A stretch of DNA of 64,000 nucleotides from contig OZ020267.1 in NCBI GenBank assembly GCA_963971225.1, positions 89,951,648 to 90,015,647 on the forward strand. The letters run 5' to 3'. This stretch comes from Melieria omissa (lineage: Eukaryota; Arthropoda; Insecta; Diptera; Ulidiidae). Of this stretch, positions 6,392-62,728 are shown piece by piece. The notes below the pieces were generated by a model. The model had not been told where the DNA came from. It did no database searches and saw only the letters and a list, made by a program, of their open reading frames with translations. The stretch's first letter is position 1. Each line of letters begins with the position of its first letter. A program made the translations under genes and the position numbers.

Positions 6392-6847
6392 TTGGGTCTG
6401 CGACGGGTGTGTGATAACATTGTTTCTTTTTTTCCTTTTTGATTTTAACAGTATTCATGATACTTCAATAATTTTTTGTACATCTTAATTTTCTATTTTT
6501 ACTAAAAAAACTTGTTCTCTTTTTTTTTTGATTGTTTCTTGACGGTATGTAAAAAGCATATCTCTTTCTTGTGTGTGAGTGTATATTTTGTGCGGTTTTA
6601 CGTGCAGTTGTATTTTGTGTGCTGGTGCAAATATGTGCTGGTGCAAGTGCTTATGTGATTGAATTTATCGCATTTCATGCTATACTTATATTGTTATGTA
6701 TATTCTAGTATATAAGATATTTATTGATTGATTTACTGACGTACTTCAGCATACAAGATTGCTGATTGTATTTTATGTGGTCTTTACTAATTTATAAAAT
6801 TTCTTTTATATTTTAATTGCATATATTTTTTCATATTTTATGTTATT

Positions 6848-7126
6848 TTATTTTTTTGGAGTGCAACTCTTGATATGGGCCTTGTGAATTCTTCTTCCAC
6901 TTTCCGTCGTTACTGTCACCCTATTGTCTTTAGATACTATCTCTTTACGGTACAATGGTTTGTTTTTCCCTTTTATTGTCTTGATTGCTACGAAAATTTC
7001 CTCGCCCTTCCTATATGTTCTTGGTTTTGACCTTCTTGCATTTCTGCGTGTGTTCTGCAGTCGGAGGTTTTTTCGAATAAGCTCCCTTAAATCATTGTTT
7101 ACCTTTTGTTTTCTAATTATCGGCAC
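6848..7126 (-). pseudogene. Errantivirus integrase C-terminal fragment
   Basis: A 92-residue basic fragment whose second half (KNKPLYRKEIVSKDNRVTV, then GRRIHKAHIKS) resembles the basic chromatin/DNA-binding tail of errantivirus integrase. A diverged second version of the same tail ends the 7387-7983 frame, so this region seems duplicated or recombined. There is no catalytic core. Confidence 0.6.
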
Positions 7127-7240
7127 TTCACTCAGATGACATTGGAAAGCTCGCGTTGTTCCCTTTTAGCCAAAAGCGTTAATAATTGCAAATGGCCTAC
7201 TCATGGCACGAGTGATTTCACGTCAGTTGAAGACATAGTC

Positions 7241-7361
7241 CTCCTGGTGGAGTTGAACCACTTCGATTGTTCGCCACTCGGACCACCGAGTTAACTGGAA
7301 TTGAACCAATCTGGCTTGATCGACTACAAACGAATTTGTACCCAGACCGCTGGGGCACAAG
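7241..7361 (-). other. Cluster of tRNA-arm-like hairpins inside errantivirus
   Basis: Five consecutive stem-loops on the element's RNA-sense strand, in order: CCCAG-cggt-CTGGG (7341-7354, D-arm-like), TACAAA-ttcg-TTTGTA (7325-7340), TTGG-TTCAATT-CCAG (7295-7309, T-arm-like), CTCGG-tggt-CCGAG (7277-7290, D-arm-like) and GTGG-TTCAACT-CCAC (7247-7261, T-arm-like). The two T-arm-like elements contain B-box-type GGTTCAAYTCC. Acceptor stems are missing and the second set is too short, so these are not functional tRNA genes by eye. Confidence 0.45.
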
Positions 7362-7386
7362 GATCTATGCATGAGTTATGTGCTCT

Positions 7387-7983
7387 TTACCGATGTTGTT
7401 TCTTATTGGTCGTCAGACATTTCTTATGTCGGATTTGTGGAATTTTTTTCCCACTTTGCGTGGTTACTGTGGCATTTCTATTTTCATTGACAGTTTCTTT
7501 CTTGTACAGCGGCTTCTGCTTGCTTTTTATCTGTTTGTTAGCAATAAAACAAAAATAAACAGGAGTTGGGTAAGATGACGTTGCAAACGATGTTTCTGGA
7601 TAGCACTGATTGAAATTGTAAATTTTCGCAGTCGGCTGCTGATAACGTAACTCTGGGACAGGGTGATGTTGTCGGCTGAACTGTTGAGGATTATGAATTT
7701 TGTTACGAGAAGCAAAACCTGAATGACAGGGGTAGACAGTCTTATTCAAAGATTTCTGGGGAACAAGGTTATGCCTTGTTGCGACTAGCTGATCAACGTC
7801 TCTTGAATTTGCTATATGTGTAAAAGTAGGGCCATATAGTTCAGAGGCATGACGAAATGAAAATATTTTTGAAAGAATTTCGTAACGATTGATATTAAAA
7901 TCACGCTCCATGCATTCATACGGCAAATCTCGGCCATGATGTTTCTCTATAGCCACAGCCAATTTTTTCAAAATTTGTAACAT
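7387..7983 (-). pseudogene. Errantivirus residual pol frame, mostly unrecognised
   Basis: A 198-residue frame between gag and the tRNA-like cluster. The last 35 residues (KQKPLYKKETVNENRNATV and onward) are a diverged copy of the integrase tail seen at 6848-7126. The remainder I do not recognise. Just upstream (about 7990-8100, minus strand) one frame shows a LDFLIDT motif that looks like the start of the aspartic protease, cut off by a deletion. The interval thus appears to be protease start joined to integrase end, with everything between removed. Confidence 0.45.
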
Positions 7984-49872: not shown

Positions 49873-50409
49873 AAATTGTAATGGATCCTGTGTTGGGCGC
49901 TATTTATGCAATAGACCCTTCCAAAAGGACCTGCTGGTATGGTTGTAGTGCAATGTCGAGCGGGTGTGCATGCTAGCTGGGTACCAGGTCGAGCACCTGC
50001 CGCTACATACCAACAATACACAAAGTCATTCATGCACGTCGGTTTTTCTTACTAGAAAACACCCAAAAAAAGAAGAAGATGACACTCTCACACCGCGGAC
50101 AATTCTACCTATCAACCGGCCATGCAACTTGACATACGGACAATCGGACGGACAATACCACTTATGAACCTACTCGTCCACCCCGCAGGTGTAGAGTATA
50201 AGTTCACGCAAGCAGCAGTGAGGCGACAACACCGAGGTGGCAACAACAAGATGGGGACCTAAGGTGTTCTATGGCCCCCGGCTCTCCCCTTCCCAACCTT
50301 AGCGAGAGCGTTTCCGTCTCTCCCGACCCATCCATTTGGCAACGACGCCGATCACATTCAATATCTATTTACATTTTATTCATTTTGATACTTATGCTAA
50401 ACATTATTT

Positions 50410-50700
50410 AGGAAGCGGAAGCCGGAAAAAATATTACAATTCTGAGCTTAGAATACTATTTAGGGGGCGGAAGCCGCAACAGAAATATAACAATTCTCAA
50501 CTTAGAATATTATGTAGGGGCGGAAGCCGCAAACTAAATATAACAATTCTCAACTTAGAATATTATGTAGGGGCGGAAGCCGCAAAAGAAATATAACAAT
50601 TCTCAGCTTAGAATACAATTTAGGGGCGGAAGGCGCAACAGAAATATAACAATTCTGAGCTGAGAATACTATGTAGGAGGCGGAAGCAGCAAAAAAGAAA
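50410..50700. repeat. Six-unit tandem array of about 54 bp in the Y LTR
   Basis: Each unit contains GCGGAAGC and an imperfect palindrome of the form ATTCTnAGCTnAGAAT or ATTCTCAACTTAGAAT, followed by an AAATATAACA-like spacer. The right LTR has the same six units (61105-61390). Confidence 0.9.
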
Positions 50701-50999
50701 TATAGATTACGTTCACTTACTCGACCTGATCGGCGATCCCTCGTTGTTTGCGCAAACAATTCGGCGATGCGGCGAAGCTCAGGAGAAATTCGTTGATTGC
50801 TGGACCTATTCCTGCTTCCCTGTTGCTGCCTTCACAGAGACGCCCAAAAAAAAATGAATTAAAGGTTACTAGGCTAAAATTTGAAACAAAGCAATTGATA
50901 GGGATACCGCACGAGGGGGGGTTTCTCCCCGCCCCCTTTCCCAGGAAAACAAAACGTGATTTGCCGTGACGGCGCTGCGGCACTTGAGCTGCTGTGGCG

Positions 51000-51290
51000 G
51001 CTATCGGATCATCCGCTGCGTCGTCGCTGTGCCGCGCTTGGCTGGCTGTGGCTGCGGGGTACGAGCGCCGCTGCAATGGCGGCTGAAGGTGGCTGCTGGT
51101 ACGTGCGCCGCTGCAATGGCGGCTGGAGGTGGCTGCTGGTACGTGCGCTGCGATGGCGGCTGCACCGCGCTTGGCTGGCGGGGCTGCTGGAACGTGCGCC
51201 GCTGCACCGCACGTGGTGGTCTGGTGGCGCTGTGGCGGCTCTCGGATCGTGCGCTGCGTCGTCGCTGTGCCGCGCTTCTTTTTCTTTTTT
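51000..51290. repeat. GC-rich minisatellite in left Y LTR
   Basis: Repeats of GCTGCTGGTACGTGCGCCGC and GGCTGGCGGGGCTGCTGGAA-type words. The lack of stops makes all frames on both strands open, which is a composition effect. It is much shorter than its partner in the right LTR. Confidence 0.85.
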
Positions 51291-51670
51291 TTCCCCCACT
51301 CCCGCTCCTTTCCACGCTCCTCGCGCCTCTTATTCTGTTCTGACCGCCTTGTTGCACTGTTCGTCCCTTAATTCTCGTCCACCTCGCTCGGTTTTCGTTC
51401 TTTTTTTTCCTGTCAAGTCAGCAGTTCGTTCGTTATTGTTCGTTGGTTGCCACGTCAGCAGTTCGCCAGTTCTTGTTCTGTGGCTGCCACGTCAGCAGTG
51501 CGAGTTTGGTGTTCATCTATTACCAGCCTAGAGTGCACACAGGGTTGCATTTTTAATCTTTTACCACACGAAAACAAAACAAAAAAAAAGGCAACCATCA
51601 CAAAGCAGGTTCAAAATTTAAGTTTGACTTAAAATTTGAATCTGAAAAATGGTTGCAATGAAAAAAAAGT

Positions 51671-52555
51671 TTACAGCGGTTGCATATCCTTGCCGTGATA
51701 TGTTCCTAAGAGCTTCCCTGACTCATCTTCAAGCACATAATATGCCGTGCCTACCCGACTTCGAACCCGCGCCTTGAGAAAAGTATGCGCTAGTTTGCTG
51801 TTAAAATTATTAGCTTGTTTACTAAGTGCAAAATTCCTCCTTAGCACTACTTGTCCTGGCTTGTAACTTATCGGCCTAGAGCGCATGTTGTATGTTTTGA
51901 CATTAGCATTGTACGATTTCTGAATGTTAGTGCGCACAGTATCTCGAATGAGCGGCAGCATGGTGAGCCAATGTTCTTGATTATGTATACACCCTTCTTC
52001 GATCATGTTAATGTTCCTCAGAAGCTCATAATTATCCCCATGTGTGACCGTGTGCTGTCCAAAGACAGTAAAATACGGACTTTTAGAGGTGGACTGATGA
52101 GTCGAGTTGCGCAGCGCGCAGTTGATACTGCTTAAGTGAACATCCCACTCGCGCTGATCTTCTTTTATGTACGCTCGAAGGGCAGCATTGATTGAGCGAT
52201 TAACTCTTTCGGAACTGTTGCTTTGCGGTGAATACAAAGCGGTGCATACATGTTTTATACCGCACTTGGTTAGAAACGATTCGAATTCCCCTGATTTGAA
52301 TTGGCTACCATTATCGCTCACGAGATACTCTGGCACACCGAAAACGTCAAATACATGGTCTTTGAGAAAGTTTATTATAGGTGTTGAACTAAATTTCTTT
52401 AAGGGGCAAAGGAAGGTAAATTTTGACAACTGGTCTAAGACGATTAAAATGCCAATATGTCCATTTTTCGCCCGGGGAAATGGGCCGATTAAGTCAACGT
52501 ACAGTCGTTGAAAAATCCTTTCAGTTGGTACGAAATTTCCCATGGGTGGTCTCAT
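51671..52555 (-). CDS. Element Y integrase core and C-terminus
   Basis: 294 codons. The D,D-E catalytic core is complete: LYVDLIGPFPRA (first Asp), LVSDNGSQFKSGEF (second Asp) and SPQSNSSERVNRSINA (Glu). A basic C-terminal region follows with VRTNIQKSYNANVKTYNMRS, YKPGQVVLRRNF and a YYVLEDESGKLLGTYHGKDM end. The frame stops at 51671, 68 bp before the LTR. The zinc-binding N-terminal domain of integrase is in the upstream frame (52552-54261). The break between them is near 52638-52641, at a four-A run on the + strand. It inserts the cDNA into the genome. Confidence 0.88.
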   Translation of the reverse strand: MRPPMGNFVPTERIFQRLYVDLIGPFPRAKNGHIGILIVLDQLSKFTFLCPLKKFSSTPIINFLKDHVFDVFGVPEYLVSDNGSQFKSGEFESFLTKCGIKHVCTALYSPQSNSSERVNRSINAALRAYIKEDQREWDVHLSSINCALRNSTHQSTSKSPYFTVFGQHTVTHGDNYELLRNINMIEEGCIHNQEHWLTMLPLIRDTVRTNIQKSYNANVKTYNMRSRPISYKPGQVVLRRNFALSKQANNFNSKLAHTFLKARVRSRVGTAYYVLEDESGKLLGTYHGKDMQPL

Positions 52556-54261
52556 GACTTTTGTCGGATATTTAGTAGACTTACATATTTCGCATTTGGA
52601 AACATACTCGCGTACAGATAGCGAAAGTCCTGGCCAGAAAAGAACCGCCTAATCCTATCGACAGTCTTGGCTATGCCGCCGTGGGCCCCTACCGGTACGT
52701 CATGAGCGTTGTGAATCACTCTTTCCTGTAAGGCTTTCGGTACGACTAGCTTCCATGTCGAATCTTGTTGTTCGATATCGCCCGAATAAGGTTCAGTCCG
52801 GTGGTATATGAAATTCTCACGAACTTGAAAATCAGGATACTTGTCCACATTGGCTAAAATTTTCTCCCGCAACTCTACATAGTCCAAGTCATTAAAATTG
52901 GGTGATGCGAGATCGATGTCTGGTACATAGTCAACTTGCAGCGCAGCTACATTTTCTGAACTGTCGGAGCATGCACGAGAGAGAGCGTCCGGAACCACGT
53001 TAGCACTACCCTTACGATGTTCAATTGTAAATTTGAAACCTTGTAACTTAAGTGCCCAGCGCGCTAGACGTCCGTTAAGGTCTGATTGTTGCATAAGCCA
53101 ACGAAGACTAGCGTGGTCAGTGATGATTTTAAATTCCTGCCCTTCTACATAAGGCCGGAACTTCTTGACGGCCAGCACTGCTGCCAAACACTCCTGCTCA
53201 GTCACGGAATAGTTGCGCTGTGCTTTGTTCAGCTTCTGCGACATATAAGCCACAGGGACTTCAACGTTTTCTTCATTTAGCTGGGCTAACACTGCCCCTA
53301 TTCCATGCTGACTTGCATCACATTGAATGATGAACGGCTTTGTAAAATCGGGGTTTGCTAAGAACGGTGCTGATGTCAACCTCTCCTTCAGTTCACTAAA
53401 TGCTGACTGTGCCTCCTCAGACCAGTCAAATGACCTAGATTTTTTTAATAGCTCAGTTAGCGGATGTGTCAAATCGGCAAAATTAGCAATAAAGCGCCGG
53501 TACCAACCTGCCATGCCCAAAAATCTGCGGAGTTGGCGTACCGTTTTAGGTGGTGGGTAATCAACAATGGCAGAAACCTTATCAGGGTCAGTCTGTAGAG
53601 TACCGTTGCCAACTACATAGCCTAAATAGCTAACTTGCGTTAAACATAATTTACTCTTGGCTATATTGATCGTTAGGCCTGCTTTTTGTATGTGGTATGC
53701 TACTTCCTGCAACAACTGAATGTGTGAAGAGAAATTTTCCGATACTAGCAATAGATCATCCAGATATACGAATACGCGCTCCTTCAAATTATAAGGAATC
53801 ACCTTATCCATTAGCCGGCACACTGTTTGTGGAGCGTTGCACAGGCCAAATGGCATTACCTTAAACTGGTAAAGAGGCCGGTTTGGCACTGTGAAAGCCG
53901 TTTTCTCGCGAGAACTCGCCTCCAATGGAATTTGCCAGAAGGCGTCTTTCAAATCCAAGCTTGAGATAAATTCTGCGCGAGGAAGTCGGCTTAAGATTCC
54001 CTCAATGTGCGGCAGTGGATAGGCGTCCTTTACCGTTACTGAATTGACTTTACGGCTGTCTAGGCAAAGCCTCACTTTCCCTGGCTTCCTCACTAACACA
54101 ACCGGTGAAGACCAGGCGCTAGGTGACTCTTCGATTACGCCCATCTGAATCATTCGATCTATTTCCTGACCCACTAACTTTTCTACTGCTGGTGAGATGG
54201 GGAAGTGCCTCTGCTTAATTGGCTTCGCTGATCCCACATCGATCACATGCTCCCGGAGCAC
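52552..54261 (-). CDS. Element Y reverse transcriptase and RNase H, start of integrase
   Basis: A 569-codon open frame. Reverse transcriptase motifs in order are VIEESPSAWSSPVVLVRKPG, LCLDSRKVN, SSLDLKDAFWQIPL (about 101-113), MPFGLCNAPQTV, catalytic YLDD at residues 166-169 (53755-53766), SYLGYVV and the thumb RRFLGMAGWYRRFI. RNase H spans about residues 311-430 with CDASQHGIGAVLAQ, EQECLAAVLAV, ITDHASLRWLM and DALSRA. The integrase His/Cys zinc domain begins near residue 530 (HNAHDVPVGAHGG). All catalytic residues that I can check are present. The frame is separated from protease and integrase by breaks at mononucleotide runs. The first ATG is not a real start, because the protein is made as part of Gag-Pol. 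Confidence 0.92.
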   Translation of the reverse strand: MLREHVIDVGSAKPIKQRHFPISPAVEKLVGQEIDRMIQMGVIEESPSAWSSPVVLVRKPGKVRLCLDSRKVNSVTVKDAYPLPHIEGILSRLPRAEFISSLDLKDAFWQIPLEASSREKTAFTVPNRPLYQFKVMPFGLCNAPQTVCRLMDKVIPYNLKERVFVYLDDLLLVSENFSSHIQLLQEVAYHIQKAGLTINIAKSKLCLTQVSYLGYVVGNGTLQTDPDKVSAIVDYPPPKTVRQLRRFLGMAGWYRRFIANFADLTHPLTELLKKSRSFDWSEEAQSAFSELKERLTSAPFLANPDFTKPFIIQCDASQHGIGAVLAQLNEENVEVPVAYMSQKLNKAQRNYSVTEQECLAAVLAVKKFRPYVEGQEFKIITDHASLRWLMQQSDLNGRLARWALKLQGFKFTIEHRKGSANVVPDALSRACSDSSENVAALQVDYVPDIDLASPNFNDLDYVELREKILANVDKYPDFQVRENFIYHRTEPYSGDIEQQDSTWKLVVPKALQERVIHNAHDVPVGAHGGIAKTVDRIRRFFSGQDFRYLYASMFPNAKYVSLLNIRQKS

Positions 54262-54897
54262 GTTTTCCCGAGGCCATTCTCTTCATACGATGGAAAGCAA
54301 CTGATGGCTGCGTTTAGCTTTTGCCTTTGCTCCGGTGTTAAGTTATGTGAATTTGAGTCTTGATTTTCGACGTTAACCTCCCCGATAATGTGAGTTGCTA
54401 ACTTAAACAACCTCCAAAAATTTACTCCTAGATAAACGTTTTGAGACAGCGTCGGAATAACGTAAAACTCAACCGGTTTTGTGCCTTTCTGATAAGTTAC
54501 TTCCAATTCAGCAACACCTACAACTTCCTGGGTAGCCCATCCGCTGTGCGAGCGTGCAGCTTCAGCGGTTTAAGACCTAGCTCGTCTTTGCGCTGGAGTA
54601 TACGTTGAGCCAGCTCTCCTCCTATACAACTAATCGTTGCCCCCCGAGTCGAGCAAGCCTAACATAGGAGTGTCAAGTAACCTAATTGAGGCGTACGGCC
54701 TAACGTCACCAGGTTTGCCTAAAATAGAAGATATTAGGTCGGTGCGCTTGAACTTCATCTTCCGCCAATACTCACTTGCGCGTAAAGCCGAGCGAGAGTC
54801 AGGTTGGTTAAAAATTTGCCTACGCCGAGTGTTATATTCTTCCAACCGTTGGTGGAATGTCCCGGGGTATCAAAAGAAACTTGAGGTTTGCAAATGG
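54243..54897 (-). pseudogene. Element Y protease and Pol N-terminus, two frame breaks
   Basis: From 54845 to 54630 the frame reads basic RRRQIFNQPDSRSALRASEY, then LDTPMLGLLDSG with the aspartic protease active site, and is lost straight after it at a six-G run on the minus strand (near 54641-54647). The frame 54506-54243 continues the protease (ELEVTYQKGTKPVEFYVIP, LSQNVYLGVNFW) and the linker to reverse transcriptase, and is again offset near 54261 beside an A run. Order and motifs are normal. The breaks may be real mutations or sequence errors. Confidence 0.8.
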
Positions 54898-56556
54898 CTA
54901 TTGGTTCTGCCGTCGATTTGACATTAGTTGTGGGGGCTTGCTGGTGTTGTTGCGAGCACCCCTCGGCGGGTTTCCCTGCTGGTTGCAATTGGGGCAATTA
55001 GGAAGGAAAAATGCTAGGAGACCGCATCCATAGCAAAATACGCGCCGCGGTTTTACGCATTGCTTATATCGATGGCCTGCCTCGTCACAATTCCAGCATT
55101 TCATGTTACTAATTTCATTAACAGCATCCATCTCAGCGAAGGATTCGCTGTCATTATCACCAGAATTGGTCCCTACTTCGTCAATTTCGGAAATATACCT
55201 CCTAGTAGCGGTAGCAGTTCTTGCAGGAAAGATCTGTGTACCCTGCACATGTTCAAAGAAATTCTCATGCCTACGACAAGCACGACGTAAATCTGACAGA
55301 GTGCCGATGTTAAGATGCAGTAACTCAAACCTAATTTCGGGTCGAAAATTGCGCATGACTGTTTCGATCAACTCTTCTTCAGTCAAAGGGGAGCTCAGTG
55401 CATCGTATAGTGTCATAATGGACTCTAAAAACTTTTCAAAGGTCTCATTCGCTTTTTGTTTGCGAGTGCGTATCGATTCTTTGATGTCGTATTCAGACCG
55501 AAAATCTTTATATTGTCTACGTAATGCCTCACATAGGTCAAACCAGTCTAATCTGTGGATAGTACGGTGATAACGCCAATACCAACTTTTAGCTTTTCCC
55601 TCAAATAGTATGTGAGCGTTTTGACATAGCGCACTAAAGTTACCGCGTAAGGATGAGACAGTCAAAGCATTGACTCGGTAGATAAATTCGTCCACAGAAA
55701 CACTTTCGATTGACCCATCAAATACGAGCTTCCAATCAGAAATAATTTTTGCAACAGAACTAAGTGAATGGTTAGTAGCCTCACCTAGCCTTTGCGGAGC
55801 GCGAGAGCTACCTCTTTGTGCTGAACCACCTTGGATTCCCGACCGCGCGCGACTCTCATCACTATTCAGCCTAGCCTGATTTAAGTTTCTACCAGAAAAG
55901 GGTTCCTGTTGAGGCCAATCCGGCTCAGCTTGGTTTTCCCGCGGGTTTCCCTCAACATTCGATTGTACCCGATTAACATTTAATGCGCGGAAATATTGCT
56001 CTAAGGAATTGGTGACCAACTGCTCAACTGTATTTTGGATTGTGCGGGTATTAGTTTCTTGCTGTCGTTGTATCGTGGTTTCTACAAGTTCTTGTAGGCG
56101 CGTCGAGTCCGAGTTAGAGTTTTGTCTTGTTAGGTTATTTTGTAGGTTCGAGGTTTTTGGACGTCTGCCCCGACGACGAGCGCTGTTCGTGGCCGGGTTA
56201 GTAGTTCCAATGAAAGGTCGATTAAGAATTTCAGCTCCCGTTGTGTGTGAGCGTGTAACAGGGCCTTCGGCAACTTTTGTTGTTCGCGGAATAGCTCCCG
56301 ATGACATTTGTTGGTGTTCTTCGGGGCGTGAGCCTTGTTCATTAAAGTCATTTATCGAGTGGGTGTCGATTACGCGACGACACAACGGACAGGTGTCATT
56401 GTCATGCAACCAGATTGAAATGCATGTGCGGTGGACCTCATGGTTGCACGGTGTAGTGGTGCAATTTGTTTCGGTAGTTGCTTCATCGCAAATAGAACAC
56501 AAACCTCCTGGTGTAACCAGTTGAGGCAAATTTTCATCACTACGACGAACAGCCAT
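54898..56556 (-). CDS. gag: Element Y Gag with N-terminal RING-H2 domain
   Basis: An intact 552-residue frame. Residues 20-59 form a complete RING-H2 finger: C20-x2-C23-x13-C37-x-H39-x2-H42-x2-C45-x10-C56-x2-C59. It has the hydrophobic residue I22, the W49 and the P57 that contact E2 enzymes in active ubiquitin ligases, and an Arg (R60) after the last Cys. A disordered, Ser/Asn/Gln-rich region (65-255, with a basic RRRGRRPK patch) is followed by a Ty3/gypsy capsid core (about 260-430: IISDWKLVFDGSIESVSVDE, KAKSWYWRYHRTI, LRRQYKDFRSEYDIKESI). A CX2CX4HX4C knuckle lies at 487-500, and a second (508-521) has Phe in place of His. The start ATG is followed at once by the RING, so the domain belongs to Gag. 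Confidence 0.92.
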   Translation of the reverse strand: MAVRRSDENLPQLVTPGGLCSICDEATTETNCTTTPCNHEVHRTCISIWLHDNDTCPLCRRVIDTHSINDFNEQGSRPEEHQQMSSGAIPRTTKVAEGPVTRSHTTGAEILNRPFIGTTNPATNSARRRGRRPKTSNLQNNLTRQNSNSDSTRLQELVETTIQRQQETNTRTIQNTVEQLVTNSLEQYFRALNVNRVQSNVEGNPRENQAEPDWPQQEPFSGRNLNQARLNSDESRARSGIQGGSAQRGSSRAPQRLGEATNHSLSSVAKIISDWKLVFDGSIESVSVDEFIYRVNALTVSSLRGNFSALCQNAHILFEGKAKSWYWRYHRTIHRLDWFDLCEALRRQYKDFRSEYDIKESIRTRKQKANETFEKFLESIMTLYDALSSPLTEEELIETVMRNFRPEIRFELLHLNIGTLSDLRRACRRHENFFEHVQGTQIFPARTATATRRYISEIDEVGTNSGDNDSESFAEMDAVNEISNMKCWNCDEAGHRYKQCVKPRRVFCYGCGLLAFFLPNCPNCNQQGNPPRGARNNTSKPPQLMSNRRQNQ

Positions 56557-56884
56557 GCTTAAAAGTTATTGTTCCCAACAAAATTCGATAAAACGTCAAA
56601 TTACGATTTCCCAAAAAAACATGTTTGTTGTACTTAAAGATAGGAAAAAAAATGGTTTCTCTTATTTTTTCGAAAGAGTTCTAAACAAAAGGTCTAAATG
56701 TGATCATGCGTCGTTGACAAAGAGAGAAATGTTGTTGCCACTCTGCATTCACCTCACGAAGTGTACAGAAAAAATTAAGTTGGTGTCGAATAGCGAGCTA
56801 CTGCTATTATTTATGAGCTACACAACTACCTTAAGTCGACTTTGTACTCATAAAAGGATAACAGCTTCAAAAGACAACATTGAC

Positions 56885-57380
56885 TTTTAGGTATAAAATA
56901 ATGGTAGAGTGTACCTTTAAGGACAGATACTTCAACTCTATTCCGAAATAAATTACAGCCTAAAAGAGCAGTGTTCGGGAGAAAGTTCGTTACGATTTCT
57001 TCCGGTTGGTTAGCTGAACGTCTACAAACCATTCACGACTAATTCCGACACCTTCCAAAAACGCAACCTTTTCAAAGAAAAGAGCGGAAATTTGTTGTGA
57101 GTATCCCACGGGTTTAATGGGCCCCAGCCTCACAAGGAAAACATGAACTTTTAGGTATAAAATAATGGTAGAGTGTACCTTTAATACAGATACTTCAACC
57201 CTATTCCGAAATAAATTAAAGCTTAAAAAGTTCGTTACGAGTTCTTCCGGTTGGTTAGCTGAACGTCTACAAAGCATTCACGACTAATTCCGACACCTTC
57301 CAAAAACGCAACCTTTTGAAAGAAAAGAAAGTAAATTTGTTGTGTGGATCCCACTGGTTTTGTGGGCCCCACGTTGGGCG
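56885..57380. repeat. 264-bp tandem duplication in element Y leader
   Basis: Two diverged direct copies (56885-57148 and 57149-57380) each start TTTTAGGTATAAAATAATGG and end near GGGCCCC. They differ by short indels. The second ends in the primer site. Confidence 0.88.
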
Positions 57381-57383
57381 CCA
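57366..57383 (-). promoter_or_regulatory. Element Y primer-binding site (tRNA-Lys)
   Basis: The minus strand reads TGGCGCCCAACGTGGGGC, an exact 18-nt complement of the 3' end (with CCA) of fly tRNA-Lys(CTT). Four bases separate it from the LTR. Confidence 0.88.
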
Positions 57384-57642
57384 TTTATGTAATGGATCCT
57401 GTGTTGGGCGCCATTTATGCAATGGACCCTTCCAAAAGGACCTGCTGGTATGGTTGTAGTGCAATGTCGAGCGGGTGTGCATGCTAGCTGGGTACCAGGC
57501 TAAGCTCTTCGGGTGTGGGGGGGTTCTTGCTCGAGCACCTGCCGCTACATACCAACAATACACAAAGTCATTCATGCACGTGGGTTTTTCTTACTAGAAA
57601 ACACCCAAAAAAAAACACCCATGAAGGTGAAGAAGAAGAATT

Positions 57643-60600
57643 CGCGTGGGCAGACGTGCCCTTTCGTTGCTCCGCGGTTTTTTAATGTTTTTATGTGTGT
57701 GCGCGTGCTAAATATATATATAAATGTTCCGAGTGTCGCGTATTGTCCGTCCGTCACTGCTATCGCGTTGTGGCCCACTAAAATCGCGCGGCCACATCAA
57801 TAAATATTTAAATTAATTAAACGCGTTATGCATTTGCAAACGCCCAACTGCAGTGCTAGTGCCGTTATATTCGCCGTGCGCCACTTCGACCTCCGTCCGC
57901 GTTGTGTTGTTGCTATGTTTTTTTTCCCGTGTTGTCTTTTTCCTCCGTCCGTTTCTAGTAGCGCTACATGCGGTCCTGTTCGACACTGGGAAATTGACTG
58001 CTCTGTGGTAAAGGCATAACACTTACCACAGGGCAACATCAATTTTTCAGTGCGTTCAGATCGCATTTCCGACTGCTTTCCTTGTCCTTTAACCCACCCA
58101 GGTCATGGTGCTGGACAAATTTCGTATAGCCTTCTGCAACGTGCGCGGGCTCAGGGCGAACTTTTTCGCAATATACGCGTATGTAAATCTCCACAAACCC
58201 CATGTAATGGCACTAGGTGAGACCCAGGTGTGTGAGGATGCAGATCCACTGGATTTTCACATCCCAGGGTACCACCTACTGCCATTATTCTCTCCCCACA
58301 GGGGTCTTGCCCTTTATGTGTGCAGTAATGTTGCGTACCAGTGCCAGCAACAATTATACACGACGGATGCCGAATTTAGCTCCATGTGGGTTAAATTCAA
58401 TATCCAGTCGCACATTCTGCACTTCTGCTTTCTGTACAGAAGCTCGAATTCAGGGAGAGATTTTACTTATAACAAGTTTGATCTTCTCTCTGATTCTATT
58501 TCCCATATCCTGGAATCGTATCCGAATAGTGAAATTGTAGTTGCTGGTGATTTCAATATTCATAATTCCAATTGGCTACGCCATTCCAGCCACACAACTC
58601 CTGAAGGCTTGTATGTCGAGCTCTTTGCCGAGTCTAATAATTTGACTCAAATAGTGCATGAACCAACGCATATCCCCTGCGTTGCGGGGCAAGCTCTCAA
58701 TACTCTAGACCTTTTCCTCACTTCACATCATGAAAAATATGATGTTGAAATGCACGCACCTCTTGGAAACTCGGACCATTGCACCATTTTGGCGTCTTTT
58801 TCATACTCTTCTATCCGCAACGCTTCGCCTTTAGCCCCGAAGCGCTTAATGTGGAAGTATGACAAAGCTAACTGGAGTGGACTTAATGATTTTTTCACCC
58901 ACTTCAACTGGAAATTGTGTTTTCTTGATAGAAACATAAATGCCGCAGCCAAAATGGTTGAAGAAATTATATTATTAGGAATGCGGTCCTTCATCCCTAA
59001 TAAGCTGGTTTGCATTAAACCCAAGGACAATATCTGGTTTAATGAGACATGCAGAATTGCTGTCAGGTCCAAAGAGGAAGCTTTCAGAACATGGCAGGCA
59101 AATAAAAATGCCGCCACTGAACAGCTGCGTAAACAGGCTAGAAATCAATGCAATGCCATCCTAAAGCGCCAAAAGTTTCTGCACGAACAGCGCCAAAGGA
59201 AAAAAGTTCTTCAATGCCAGCGTGGTAGTAAGAACTTCTGGTCATTCGTTAAGAAGGTGAAGAATCAAACATCGTCTTCAATTCCAACTCTCCTTAACAA
59301 TGATCAAATCATCACTCACTCGGTTGATAAAGCTAATTGGTTGGCTAAAATTTTCGCAGAGAATTCCTCTCTGCCCCCCAGCGATCAACCACTACCCGTA
59401 GTCGAGAACGTATCTTGCTCTATGCCAGAAATTCATTTTCGGACACGGGTAGTTAAAAGAGTGCTTGCAAATCTCGATGTAAATAAGGCTTCAGGGCCGG
59501 ACGGCATTCCAGCCCTTGTTTTGCAAAAGTGCGCTACCTCACTGGCTTGTCCATTACGCAAACTTTTCAACATGTCATACACCACAGGTGTATTTCCGAC
59601 ATGCTGGAAGGTGGCAAATGTTCAACCAGTTCCTAAAAAAGGCAAGACTACTGACCCTGCGAACTACCGACCTATAGCAATCTGTTCGGTGCTTTCCAAA
59701 GTAATGGAAAGCATTATTAACTTCAACCTTGTGAAATATTTGGAGCACAATAGACTGCTAAGTGACCGCCAATACGGCTTTCGAAGACAGCGATCGACGG
59801 GAGACCTTATGGCGGTCCTCACCGAGAAATGGAACCATAGCATTCTAAACCTCGGTGAAAGCAAGGTTGTTGCACTGGATATTTCTAAGGCCTTTGACCG
59901 GGTGTGGCATAAAGCACTCGTGTCTAAATTGATTGCCTATGGCGTCGGTAGTATCTTCTCTCGTTGGATTACGAGTTTCCTCTATGATCGCTCTATTCGT
60001 GTTGTAATAGACGGCATAGCCTCGGAAAAACATTCCCTTAGCGCGGGAGTGCCGCAGGGTTCGGTCCTTTCTCCAACCCTTTTCCTTATCTTCATCAACG
60101 ACCTATTGTCGTCGACGAAGAATCCCATCTACTCGTTTGCGGATGACAGCACCATTTGTCATTCATACTCCTTCAAAAAGCGCCCCAGCTCTGTGGAGAT
60201 TGAGAGAGAACGGCGCCGTATGAATGACACACTTAATAGCGACCTACAAACAATCTCCAAGTGGGGTCAAGCGAACAGGGTCGATTTTAATCCTCGCAAG
60301 ACCCAATGTTGCCTGTTATCCCACAAGCGAGTTTCCCAACATTCCAACAGATCCCTGGTTATGGATGGTGTGAGTATTGCGGAATCGGCAGCTCTTGATG
60401 TTCTGGGCATGTCCATTAAGAATGATCTTCGTTGGAACGATCATATTTTTGGCGTGTCGAAAGAAGCAGCCAAGTGCCTCGGCTTCTTAAAGCGGTGCAA
60501 AAAATATTTCACCCCGTCCGATCTCCGCAATATTTATACCACCTATATCCGACCTAAAATGGAGTTTAACTCGCACCTATGGGCAGGGGCTTCAAAAACC

Positions 60601-60790
60601 CATTTGGAGCTCCTGGATCGGGTGCAAAACCGTGCGATTAAACTTATAGGGGACAGTAGGGCATCCAGTTCTATTGACTCCTTGGAGCATCGTCGCAACG
60701 TGGCATGTGTGGTTTTATTCTACCGATACTTTTTCGGTAATTGCTCAGTGGAGATGAGCAGCTTGATGCCATCACTCCGGGTATTCCCAC
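57643..60790 (+). mobile_element. LINE copy B, jockey superfamily, 3'-truncated
   Basis: Same family as copy A (17135-21210), with the same 5' end CGCGTGGGCAGACGTGCC. It stops abruptly at 60790 within the coding region (copy A continues about 400 bp further to its A tail) and is joined there to LTR sequence. Loss of the 3' end is unusual for a LINE and implies a later deletion or recombination. Confidence 0.88.
57988..58048 (+). promoter_or_regulatory. LINE copy B 5' UTR hairpin
   Basis: GGAAATTGACTGCTCTGTGG pairs with CCACAGGGCAACATCAATTT around a short loop. Same position and shape as 17471-17525 in copy A. Confidence 0.6.
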
Positions 60791-60861
60791 GGACAATTCT
60801 ACCTATCAACCGGCCATGCAACTTGACATACGGACAATCGGACGGACAATACCACTTATGA
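58105..60861 (+). CDS. LINE copy B endonuclease/reverse transcriptase, open to the truncation
   Basis: 918 codons, of which about 895 belong to the LINE. The last 23 are translated from LTR sequence. Endonuclease: FRIAFCNVRGLRANFF, ETQVCEDADPLDFHIPGYH, VVAGDFNIHNSNW, GNSDHCTI. Reverse transcriptase: NKASGPDGIPALVLQK, PVPKKGKTTDPANYRPIA, YGFRRQRSTGD, LDISKAFDRVWH, AGVPQGSVLSPTLF, and FADD at 60136-60147 with a Ser after the Asp pair. The thumb reaches EHRRNVACVVLFYRYFF before the junction. Unlike copy A no frame break is seen, and the EN/RT frame is the only frame of the element visible. The missing end held about 110 residues. Confidence 0.9.
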   Translation: MVLDKFRIAFCNVRGLRANFFAIYAYVNLHKPHVMALGETQVCEDADPLDFHIPGYHLLPLFSPHRGLALYVCSNVAYQCQQQLYTTDAEFSSMWVKFNIQSHILHFCFLYRSSNSGRDFTYNKFDLLSDSISHILESYPNSEIVVAGDFNIHNSNWLRHSSHTTPEGLYVELFAESNNLTQIVHEPTHIPCVAGQALNTLDLFLTSHHEKYDVEMHAPLGNSDHCTILASFSYSSIRNASPLAPKRLMWKYDKANWSGLNDFFTHFNWKLCFLDRNINAAAKMVEEIILLGMRSFIPNKLVCIKPKDNIWFNETCRIAVRSKEEAFRTWQANKNAATEQLRKQARNQCNAILKRQKFLHEQRQRKKVLQCQRGSKNFWSFVKKVKNQTSSSIPTLLNNDQIITHSVDKANWLAKIFAENSSLPPSDQPLPVVENVSCSMPEIHFRTRVVKRVLANLDVNKASGPDGIPALVLQKCATSLACPLRKLFNMSYTTGVFPTCWKVANVQPVPKKGKTTDPANYRPIAICSVLSKVMESIINFNLVKYLEHNRLLSDRQYGFRRQRSTGDLMAVLTEKWNHSILNLGESKVVALDISKAFDRVWHKALVSKLIAYGVGSIFSRWITSFLYDRSIRVVIDGIASEKHSLSAGVPQGSVLSPTLFLIFINDLLSSTKNPIYSFADDSTICHSYSFKKRPSSVEIERERRRMNDTLNSDLQTISKWGQANRVDFNPRKTQCCLLSHKRVSQHSNRSLVMDGVSIAESAALDVLGMSIKNDLRWNDHIFGVSKEAAKCLGFLKRCKKYFTPSDLRNIYTTYIRPKMEFNSHLWAGASKTHLELLDRVQNRAIKLIGDSRASSSIDSLEHRRNVACVVLFYRYFFGNCSVEMSSLMPSLRVFPRTILPINRPCNLTYGQSDGQYHL

Positions 60862-61104
60862 ACCTACTCGTCCACCCCGCAGGTGTAGAGTATAAGTTCA
60901 CGCAAGCAGCAGTGAGGCGACAACACCGAGGTGGCAACAACAAGATGGGGACCTAAGGTGTTCTATGGCCCCCGGCTCTCCCCTTCCCAACCTTAGCGAG
61001 AGCGTTTCCGTCTCTCCCGACCCATCCATTTGGCAACGACGCCGATCACATTCAATATCTATTTACATTTTATTCATTTTGATACTTATGCTAAACATTA
61101 TTTA

Positions 61105-61390
61105 GGAAGCGGAAGCCGGAAAAAAATATTACAATTCTGAGCTTAGAATACTATTTAGGGGGCGGAAGCCGCAACAGAAATATAACAATTCTCAACTTAG
61201 AATATTATGTACGGGCGGAAGCCGCAAAAGAAATATAACAATTCTCAACTTAGAATATTATGTACGGGCGGAAGCCGCAAAAGAAATATAACAATTCTCA
61301 GCTTAGAATACTATTTAGGGGCGGAAGCCGCAACAGAAATATAACAATTCTGAGCTGAGAATACTATGTAGGAGGCGGAAGCAGCAAAAA
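61105..61390. repeat. Six-unit tandem array in right Y LTR
   Basis: Counterpart of 50410-50700, same unit number, with a few substitutions (for example GTACGGGCGG for GTAGGGGCGG). Confidence 0.9.
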
Positions 61391-61689
61391 AGAAATATAG
61401 ATTACGTTCACTTACTCGACCTGATCGGCGATCCCTCGTTGTTTGCGCAAACAATTCGGCGATGCGGCGAACTCAGGAGAAATTCGTTGATTGCTGGACC
61501 TATTCCTGCTTCCCTGTTGCTGCTTCACAGAGACGCCCAAAAAAAAATGAATTAAAGGTTACTAGGCTAAAATTTGAAACAAAGCAATTGATAGGGATAC
61601 CGCACGAGGGGGGGTTTCTCCCCGCCCCCTTTCCCAGGAAAACAAAACGTGATTTGCCGTGACGGCGCTGCGGCACTTGAGCTGCTGTG

Positions 61690-62470
61690 GCGGCTATCGG
61701 ATCATCCGCTGCGTCGTCGCTGTGCCGCGCTTGGCTGGCTGTGGCTGCGGGGTACGTGCGCCGCTGCAATGGCGGCTGAAGGTGGCTGCTGGTACATGCG
61801 CCGCTGCAATGGCGGCTGCACAGCGCTTGGCTGGCGGGGCTGCTGGAACGTGCGCCGCTGCACCGCACGTGGTGGTCTGGTGGCGCTGTGGCGGCGCTGC
61901 ACCGCACGTGGCTGCGGGAACGTGCCCCGCTGCAATGGCGGCTGGCGGTGGCTGCTGGTACGTGCGCTGCGATGGCGGCTGCACCGCGCTTGGCTGGCGG
62001 GGCTGCTGGAACGTGCGCCGCTGCACCGCACGTGGTGGTCTGGTGGCGCTGTGGCGGCGCTGCACCGCACGTGGCTGCGAAAAGTGCGCTGTGGCGGCTG
62101 CGCAGCACTTGGCTGGCGGGGCTGCTGGAACGTGCGCCGCTGCACCGCACGTGGTGGTCTGGTGGCGCTGTGGCGGCTCTCGGATCGTGCGCTGCGTCGT
62201 CGCTGTGCCGCGCTTGGCTGGCGGTGGCTGCTGGTACGTGCGCCGCTGCATTGGCGGCTGGAGGTGGCTGCTGGTACGTGCGCTGCGATGGCGGCTGCAC
62301 CGCGCTTGGCTGGCGGGGCTGCTGGAACGTGCGCCGCTGCACCGCACGTGGCAGCGAAAAGTGCGCTGTGGCGGCTGCCCAGCGCTTGGCTGGCGGGGCT
62401 GCTGGAACGTGCGCCGCTGCACCGCTCGTGGTGGTCTGGTGGCGCTGTGGCGGCTCTCGGATCATGCGCC
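61690..62470. repeat. Expanded GC-rich minisatellite in right Y LTR
   Basis: At least four long units containing GGCTGGCGGGGCTGCTGGAA and CGTGGTGGTCTGGTGGCGCT (beginning near 61827, 61990, 62109 and 62389) plus partial ones, against a single unit in the left LTR. Several frames of 240-320 codons on both strands cross it. I regard these as composition artefacts. Confidence 0.85.
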
Positions 62471-62728
62471 TCGCGCCTCTTTTTTCCTCTTATTCTGTTC
62501 TGACCGCCTTGTTGCACTGTTCGTCCCTTAATTCTCGTCCACCTCGCTCGGTTTTCGTTCTTTTTTTTCCTATCAAGTCAGCAGTTCGTTCGTTATTGTT
62601 CGGTGGTTGCCACGTCAGCAGTGCGAGTTTGGTGTTCATCTATTACCAGCCTAGAGTGCACACAGGGTTGCATTTTTAATCTTTTACCACACGAAAACAA
62701 AACAAAAAAAAGGCAACCATCACAAAAT

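What the first reader, a model, noticed from the sequence alone, without database searches (positions are those of the whole stretch)
54898..56556. Retrotransposon Gag with a complete N-terminal RING-H2 (E3-ligase-like) domain
Seen: eight ligands in exact RING-H2 spacing (C20, C23, C37, H39, H42, C45, C56, C59), plus I22, W49 and P57 at the E2-contact positions and R60 after the last Cys, in the same open frame as a standard gypsy capsid core and zinc knuckle. Known: host TRIM/RING proteins restrict retroelements, and RING ligases ubiquitinate neighbours. Inference: the element may carry its own ubiquitin ligase to modify Gag particles, a host restriction factor or silencing proteins. I do not know of a described Gag with this arrangement.
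Basis: partly seen in the sequence, partly recalled or inferred. Interest (0 to 1): 0.92.

Follow-up and report, generated by a model that had tools for sequence, protein, structure and literature searches.

The report
Retrotransposon capsid protein carrying RING domain
A jumping gene in what is likely a fly genome encodes a capsid protein that begins with an intact RING zinc domain, found also in six related families of that genome and predicted to attach ubiquitin to proteins; the same arrangement was already reported for this element lineage, and I found no experiment on what it does.

Summary
The 552-aa gag frame (56556-54898, minus) holds a complete RING-H2 domain (Pfam zf-RING_2, E 5.5e-9, above cut-off), a predicted long helix, a capsid region and two zinc motifs. 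It is no private fusion: 45 of 48 related gag loci read in the same genome keep all eight zinc ligands in the gag frame, across six subfamilies, and RING-Gags occur in Eurosta, Rhagoletis, Drosophila yakuba, Calliphora and Lucilia. In the three best-sampled subfamilies RING pN/pS is 0.09-0.14 against 0.34-0.39 in the linker; two small ones do not show this. On a capsid tree RING state needs two changes among 57 scorable rows; RING-less members cluster, so later loss is likelier than recent gain. The element fits the Osvaldo lineage (tRNA-Lys primer site, 1.7-kb LTRs). The claim of novelty fails: Negre and Simpson (2013) report a RING in the Gag of a Calliphora Isis-like element and in Osvaldo. 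Ubiquitin-ligase activity is plausible but untested; only 19 of 33 RING-bearing relatives keep all four E2-contact residues.

The parts
54898..56556 (-). gag frame, 552 aa, uninterrupted
56527..56556 (-). leader peptide, residues 1-10 (MAVRRSDENL)
   Evidence: similar leaders in RING-bearing and RING-less relatives
56377..56499 (-). RING-H2 domain, residues 20-60
   Evidence: Pfam zf-RING_2 5.5e-9; predicted fold, pLDDT block means 92-95
55981..56106 (-). predicted long helix, residues 151-192
   Evidence: AlphaFold2 model
55249..55794 (-). capsid region, about residues 255-436
   Evidence: Retrotrans_gag; Foldseek to dArc1/dArc2 capsids, best E 4.3e-5
55057..55098 (-). CCHC zinc knuckle, residues 487-500
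   Evidence: sequence and alignment
54985..55035 (-). second zinc-type motif CxxC..CxxC, residues 508-524
   Evidence: cysteines invariant in 29 aligned Gags
51671..54950 (-). pol (protease region, RT-RNase H, integrase), spread over three frames in this copy
57366..57383 (-). primer-binding site, match to the tRNA-Lys 3' end (tRNA end recalled)
49877..51602 (-). 3' LTR, 1,726 bp
57388..62724 (-). 5' LTR, interrupted at about 57614-60786 by another retroelement
49873..49876 (.). ATTT flank (target-site duplication), right after the 3' LTR
62725..62728 (.). ATTT flank (target-site duplication), just before the 5' LTR

Best explanation
The gag gene of an Osvaldo-type Ty3/gypsy retrotransposon encodes a RING-H2 domain joined in frame to its capsid, and this RING likely works as a ubiquitin ligase displayed on the element's own particles. 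Shown: the domain order, its presence in six subfamilies of the genome, purifying selection on the RING in the well-sampled ones, intact E2-contact residues in this family, and absence of the domain in a related group of Gags that keeps the rest of the protein. Inferred: assembly of Gag would bring many RINGs together and favour E2 binding, and ubiquitin would pass to Gag itself or to host proteins held on the particle. Because relatives do without the domain, it is likely an accessory function (control of Gag level or of host factors) and not part of capsid building.
For: Profile and fold. Conservation: 45 of 48 loci. RING pN/pS 0.12, 0.09, 0.14 in subfamilies A, B, C against linker 0.39, 0.34, 0.35. 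E2-contact positions 22, 49, 57, 60 vary less than other non-ligand RING positions (1.29 against 2.30 bits, permutation 0.008, 29 sequences). Solved RINGs matched by sequence or fold include RNF12, RNF38 and RNF165 in complexes with E2 or E2~ubiquitin. RING and capsid distances correlate (rho 0.35, 1 of 2000 permutations as high, 28 sequences). RING-less relatives cluster on the capsid tree.
Against: No activity was measured. Only 19 of 33 RING-bearing rows keep all four E2-contact residues. E2 positions are conserved in RINGs in general and share family history, so one search is weak evidence of activity. RING pN/pS is 0.51 in D and 0.50 in F (in F above the linker's 0.36), on 7 and 3 variable codons. 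The lysine-poor linker is no sign of self-ubiquitination: RING-less Gags are poorer still. Foldseek E-values for RING matches are 0.019 or more. The Osvaldo placement was not tested on a pol tree.
Confidence: 0.5

Rival explanations
1. The RING is a structural zinc module or protein-docking surface of Gag without ligase activity, as recalled for the RING of the arenavirus Z matrix protein.
For: Zinc ligands are kept more widely than E2-contact residues: W49 in 24 of 33 and R/K60 in 25 of 33 rows, with H, E, K or Y at 49 elsewhere; the RING sits where retroviral Gags have a matrix region.
Against: The E2 set is complete in the window family and in most nearest relatives; RING-less Gags exist, so it is not needed for particle building.
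Confidence: 0.35
2. The RING is a relic of an ancestral fusion, now under weak constraint and being lost branch by branch.
For: Absent in 24 of 58 scorable Gags; L012 and L020 have lost one ligand in otherwise open frames; small subfamilies D and F show RING pN/pS near 0.5.
Against: RING pN/pS 0.09-0.14 in the three well-sampled subfamilies, at or near capsid values.
Confidence: 0.1
3. A private insertion or chance fusion of a host RING exon in this one copy.
For: This copy's pol is broken and its 5' LTR is interrupted.
Against: Same arrangement in 45 of 48 loci and in proteins of other species; published for Osvaldo and the Isis-like element.
Confidence: 0.01

Closest known systems
Isis-like element of Calliphora vicina (Negre and Simpson 2013, PMC3630058; passages seen)
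   Same: Osvaldo-lineage gypsy element with long LTRs and a RING in its 531-aa Gag; a C. vicina RING-Gag-RT gene model (P0115) is 35% identical to the window Gag over residues 20-522, though I did not show that it is the same element.
   Different: Its LTRs are 2.57 kb against 1.7 kb here; different species and family.
Osvaldo of Drosophila buzzatii
   Same: Reported to have a RING in Gag and to prime with tRNA-Lys.
RLIM/RNF12, RNF38, RNF165 RING-H2 ubiquitin ligases
   Same: RING sequence and predicted fold; E2-contact residues.
   Different: Host enzymes without a capsid; activity of the Gag RING is unknown.
TRIM5-type host restriction factors (recalled)
   Same: A RING followed by a long helix and brought together on a capsid lattice; for Gag this is inference.
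   Different: No B-box or SPRY match in the Pfam scan of this Gag; here the RING belongs to the element.

Membership tests
Osvaldo lineage of Ty3/gypsy | primer site complementary to tRNA-Lys (as given in PMC3286476) | tested here: met
   57383-57366; same core in the other copies examined, L049, L050, L051, L053, L054; tRNA end recalled; trait
Osvaldo lineage of Ty3/gypsy | long LTRs (997-2055 bp in mosquito members) | tested here: met
   3' LTR 1,726 bp; trait
Osvaldo lineage of Ty3/gypsy | pol falls in the Osvaldo clade on a tree | not tested
   no reference Osvaldo pol available with these tools; the pol search named fly proteins only by locus
Osvaldo lineage of Ty3/gypsy | Ty3/gypsy domain order gag, RT-RNase H, integrase | tested here: met
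RING-H2 E3 ubiquitin ligases | eight zinc ligands in RING-H2 order and a profile match above cut-off | tested here: met
RING-H2 E3 ubiquitin ligases | E2-contact residues (I/L, W, P, R/K; set recalled) | tested here: met
   I22, W49, P57, R60 in the window; all four in 19 of 33 RING-bearing rows
RING-H2 E3 ubiquitin ligases | ubiquitin transfer | not testable with these tools
   needs a bench assay
TRIM proteins | B-box after the RING | tested here: not met
   no B-box among the 11 Pfam families at E up to 0.1
Errantiviruses (env-bearing gypsy) | env frame downstream of pol | tested here: not met
   pol frame ends at 51671 and the 3' LTR begins at 51602

The most novel reading that the evidence does not exclude
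A whole retrotransposon lineage has, since before its deep branches split, carried its own assembly-triggered ubiquitin ligase on the outside of its particles, used to remove or modify host proteins that bind the capsid (a TRIM5 turned round); one branch discarded it and carries in its place a short conserved 'NVSFTV' motif that would recruit a host factor instead.
Probability: 0.25. Interest if true: 0.75.

Novelty: new member of a known kind. Interest (0 to 1): 0.42.

Why it matters
If active, this would be a ubiquitin ligase built into the structural protein of a retroelement, in a lineage with natural RING-bearing and RING-less relatives, so its part in assembly, Gag level and host interaction could be tested by plain comparison in fly cells. 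It would also give a meaning to RING-Gag gene models now filed as 'uncharacterized protein' in fly databases.

Tried and rejected
Lysine test: linkers of RING-bearing Gags are lysine-poor (K per residue 0.0245, 33 rows), but those of RING-less Gags are poorer (0.0110, 23 rows; Mann-Whitney p 0.0005), so there is no support for selection against self-ubiquitination.

Private fusion: rejected. Errantivirus: rejected for want of an env frame. TRIM membership: rejected.

Literature: eight searches. PMC3630058, PMC12910113 and PMC3286476 were seen as passages; PMC12910113 gave only a legend listing RING among D. virilis TE domains. In PMC12992720 the word ring occurs once, as ring canals (12 of 25 passages shown); PMC3098803 and PMC5408442 hold no 'ring'; PMC3175473 has RING only in a Pfam table. 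No test of ligase activity of such a Gag turned up in the listings of these searches, which cover open-licence papers only; the original Osvaldo and Isis papers were not seen.

The VIA-align listing covered the capsid only; its silence on the RING means nothing. In the tree's own table, where truncated rows count as a third label, RING+ needs 6 changes; the figure of 2 is for the 57 rows of known state. The host species was not identified: 'likely fly' rests on the species named for related elements.

Full report
What is there. On the minus strand, 56556-54898 is one open frame of 552 codons. It encodes, in order, a ten-residue leader, a RING-H2 domain (residues 20-60), an arginine-rich, lysine-poor linker, a predicted 42-residue helix (151-192), a capsid region (about 255-436), a CCHC knuckle (487-500) and a second CxxC..CxxC motif (508-524). 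Pfam gives zf-RING_2 at 5.5e-9 and Retrotrans_gag at 1.1e-8, both above their cut-offs. AlphaFold2 on 55 sequences gives block means of 92-95 over the RING and mostly 84-98 over the capsid, with mean pLDDT 72.6 and pTM 0.40 because the linkers are low. Foldseek has seven matches at E up to 0.001, all dArc capsids; RING ligases (RNF12, RNF165, RNF38 and others) follow at E 0.019 and weaker with high probability and, for RNF165, TM-scores of 0.76-0.83 on the target. By sequence the RING matches RLIM/RNF12 at 2.8e-10.

The element. It lies on the minus strand between 4-bp ATTT flanks at 62725-62728 and 49873-49876. The 3' LTR is 49877-51602 (1,726 bp). The 5' LTR runs 62724-57388 and is split at about 57614-60786 by another retroelement. 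The LTRs match at 95.6% over 1,151 columns and 85.0% over 226 columns. The primer site at 57383-57366 fits the 3' end of tRNA-Lys, which I recall. pol follows gag but is spread over three frames here, so this copy is defective although its gag is open. No room is left for env. Another copy, L049, has open gag and pol frames and LTR stretches 99.3% alike over 1,082 and 94.9% over 567 columns. tRNA-Lys priming and LTRs of 997-2055 bp are the traits that a Culex study gives for Osvaldo-like elements (PMC3286476, passages). I did not place pol on a tree with Osvaldo.

Is the RING a trait of the family? A search of the whole assembly (490 Mb) gave 119 match rows. I read 48 loci: 8 given by the tool and 40 picked by me from that table. 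They form six subfamilies (A 9 plus L008, B 15, C 11, D 4, E 5, F 3; my grouping), representatives of the others being 29-32% identical to the window Gag. 45 of 48 hold all eight ligands in a gag frame; L012, L020 and L036 have each lost one, the first two in otherwise open frames. Many of the 48 are near-copies.

Elsewhere, 54 database proteins matched; an alignment search listed 87, which I read as 59 Gags and 28 RING proteins without a gag domain. In a Pfam scan of the window Gag with the first 54, 51 of 55 match Retrotrans_gag and 24 of 55 match zf-RING_2 at E up to 0.001. RING-bearing hits with species names are from Eurosta solidaginis, Rhagoletis pomonella and Drosophila yakuba; a pol search listing the best 120 of 5096 added RING-Gag-RT gene models of Calliphora vicina and Lucilia sericata.

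Selection. Summed over pairs within a subfamily, RING pN/pS is 0.12 in A, 0.09 in B and 0.14 in C; linker 0.39, 0.34 and 0.35; capsid 0.22, 0.14 and 0.10. D gives 0.51 (linker 0.82, capsid 0.25) on 7 variable RING codons, F 0.50 (linker 0.36, capsid 0.12) on 3, and E has one variable RING codon. Between B and F (four loci) the RING is 0.33, linker 0.61, capsid 0.20. So the RING is constrained roughly as the capsid is in the well-sampled subfamilies; the small ones cannot say, and F as it stands points the other way.

Gain or loss. I labelled 70 Gags (59 database proteins, 11 from this genome): 34 with RING, 24 without, 12 too truncated to call; six labels were set by hand after reading N-termini. 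A tree of capsid plus knuckle for 69 of them (P0048 dropped by the motif filter) needs two changes of RING state over the 57 rows of known state. RING-bearing rows lie on both sides of the midpoint root. Of 23 RING-less rows, 21 sit in one supported clade (99/98); the other two, P0023 and P0029, lie in the next larger clade of 32, which also holds one RING-bearing row, P0008. The count cannot tell gain from loss, but RING on both sides of the root favours an ancestral RING later lost. The leader pattern [RH]Sxx[NDEH][LIVF] occurs in 21 of 34 RING-bearing and 21 of 24 RING-less rows; where it is present in RING-less Gags, the domain is missing after a conserved start and not through a late start codon. 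RING and capsid distances correlate (rho 0.35; 1 of 2000 permutations as high; 28 sequences), as long joint descent would give.

Is it a ligase? For: I22, W49, P57 and R60 are present here, and these positions vary less than the other non-ligand RING positions (1.29 against 2.30 bits, permutation 0.008, 29 sequences), though they are conserved in RINGs in general. Against: only 19 of 33 RING-bearing rows keep all four; position 49 is Y, H, K or E in 9 and position 57 is Y or A in 3, so some branches would be weak or inactive. The lysine test gave no support. I take a ligase acting on particle-bound proteins as likeliest, about one in two, with a non-catalytic zinc module as the main rival.

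What is known. [quoted passage not shown] a supplement legend there also colours a RING in Pao_Cv1. A 2026 Drosophila virilis paper lists RING among TE domains in a legend (PMC12910113). The arrangement is thus described already. No functional study appeared in the eight searches.

Verdict. A real, conserved domain of untested function in a known kind of element: new member of a known kind, interest 0.42.

Noticed in passing
L056 (G000 C4:43,697,001-43,706,999), 1439-2338 and 6745-7644 minus: A tandem array of a 5,306-bp unit (99.96% between two neighbours) holds an internally deleted copy of the window family with an open 300-aa frame: leader, RING and linker, without capsid. One search lists six such 1-256 matches in two places.
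   Followed up: partly
L058 (G000 C36:564,001-573,999): A second tandem array, unit 6,120 bp (99.92% between neighbours), holds subfamily E gag and part of pol.
   Followed up: partly
database proteins P0030-P0048: RING-less Gags carry after the leader a motif of the type NVSFTV (13 of 24 RING-less, 0 of 34 RING-bearing), roughly where the RING would be.
   Followed up: partly
58105-60861 (+), within about 57614-60786: A 918-aa frame that looks by eye like a non-LTR retroelement endonuclease-reverse transcriptase, nested in the 5' LTR; its last bases run into LTR sequence.
   Followed up: no
57340-57430; L049 1820-1930; L050 1780-1860: The tRNA-Lys primer-site core is repeated two to four times in units of about 30 bp across the LTR end, one of them matching in full.
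   Followed up: no
50991-51604 and 61707-62726: G+C-rich, repetitive stretches inside both LTRs give long open frames on several frames, likely without coding meaning.
   Followed up: no
56862-57126 and 57125-57371: A tandem duplication of about 250 bp between primer site and gag start (85% alike).
   Followed up: no
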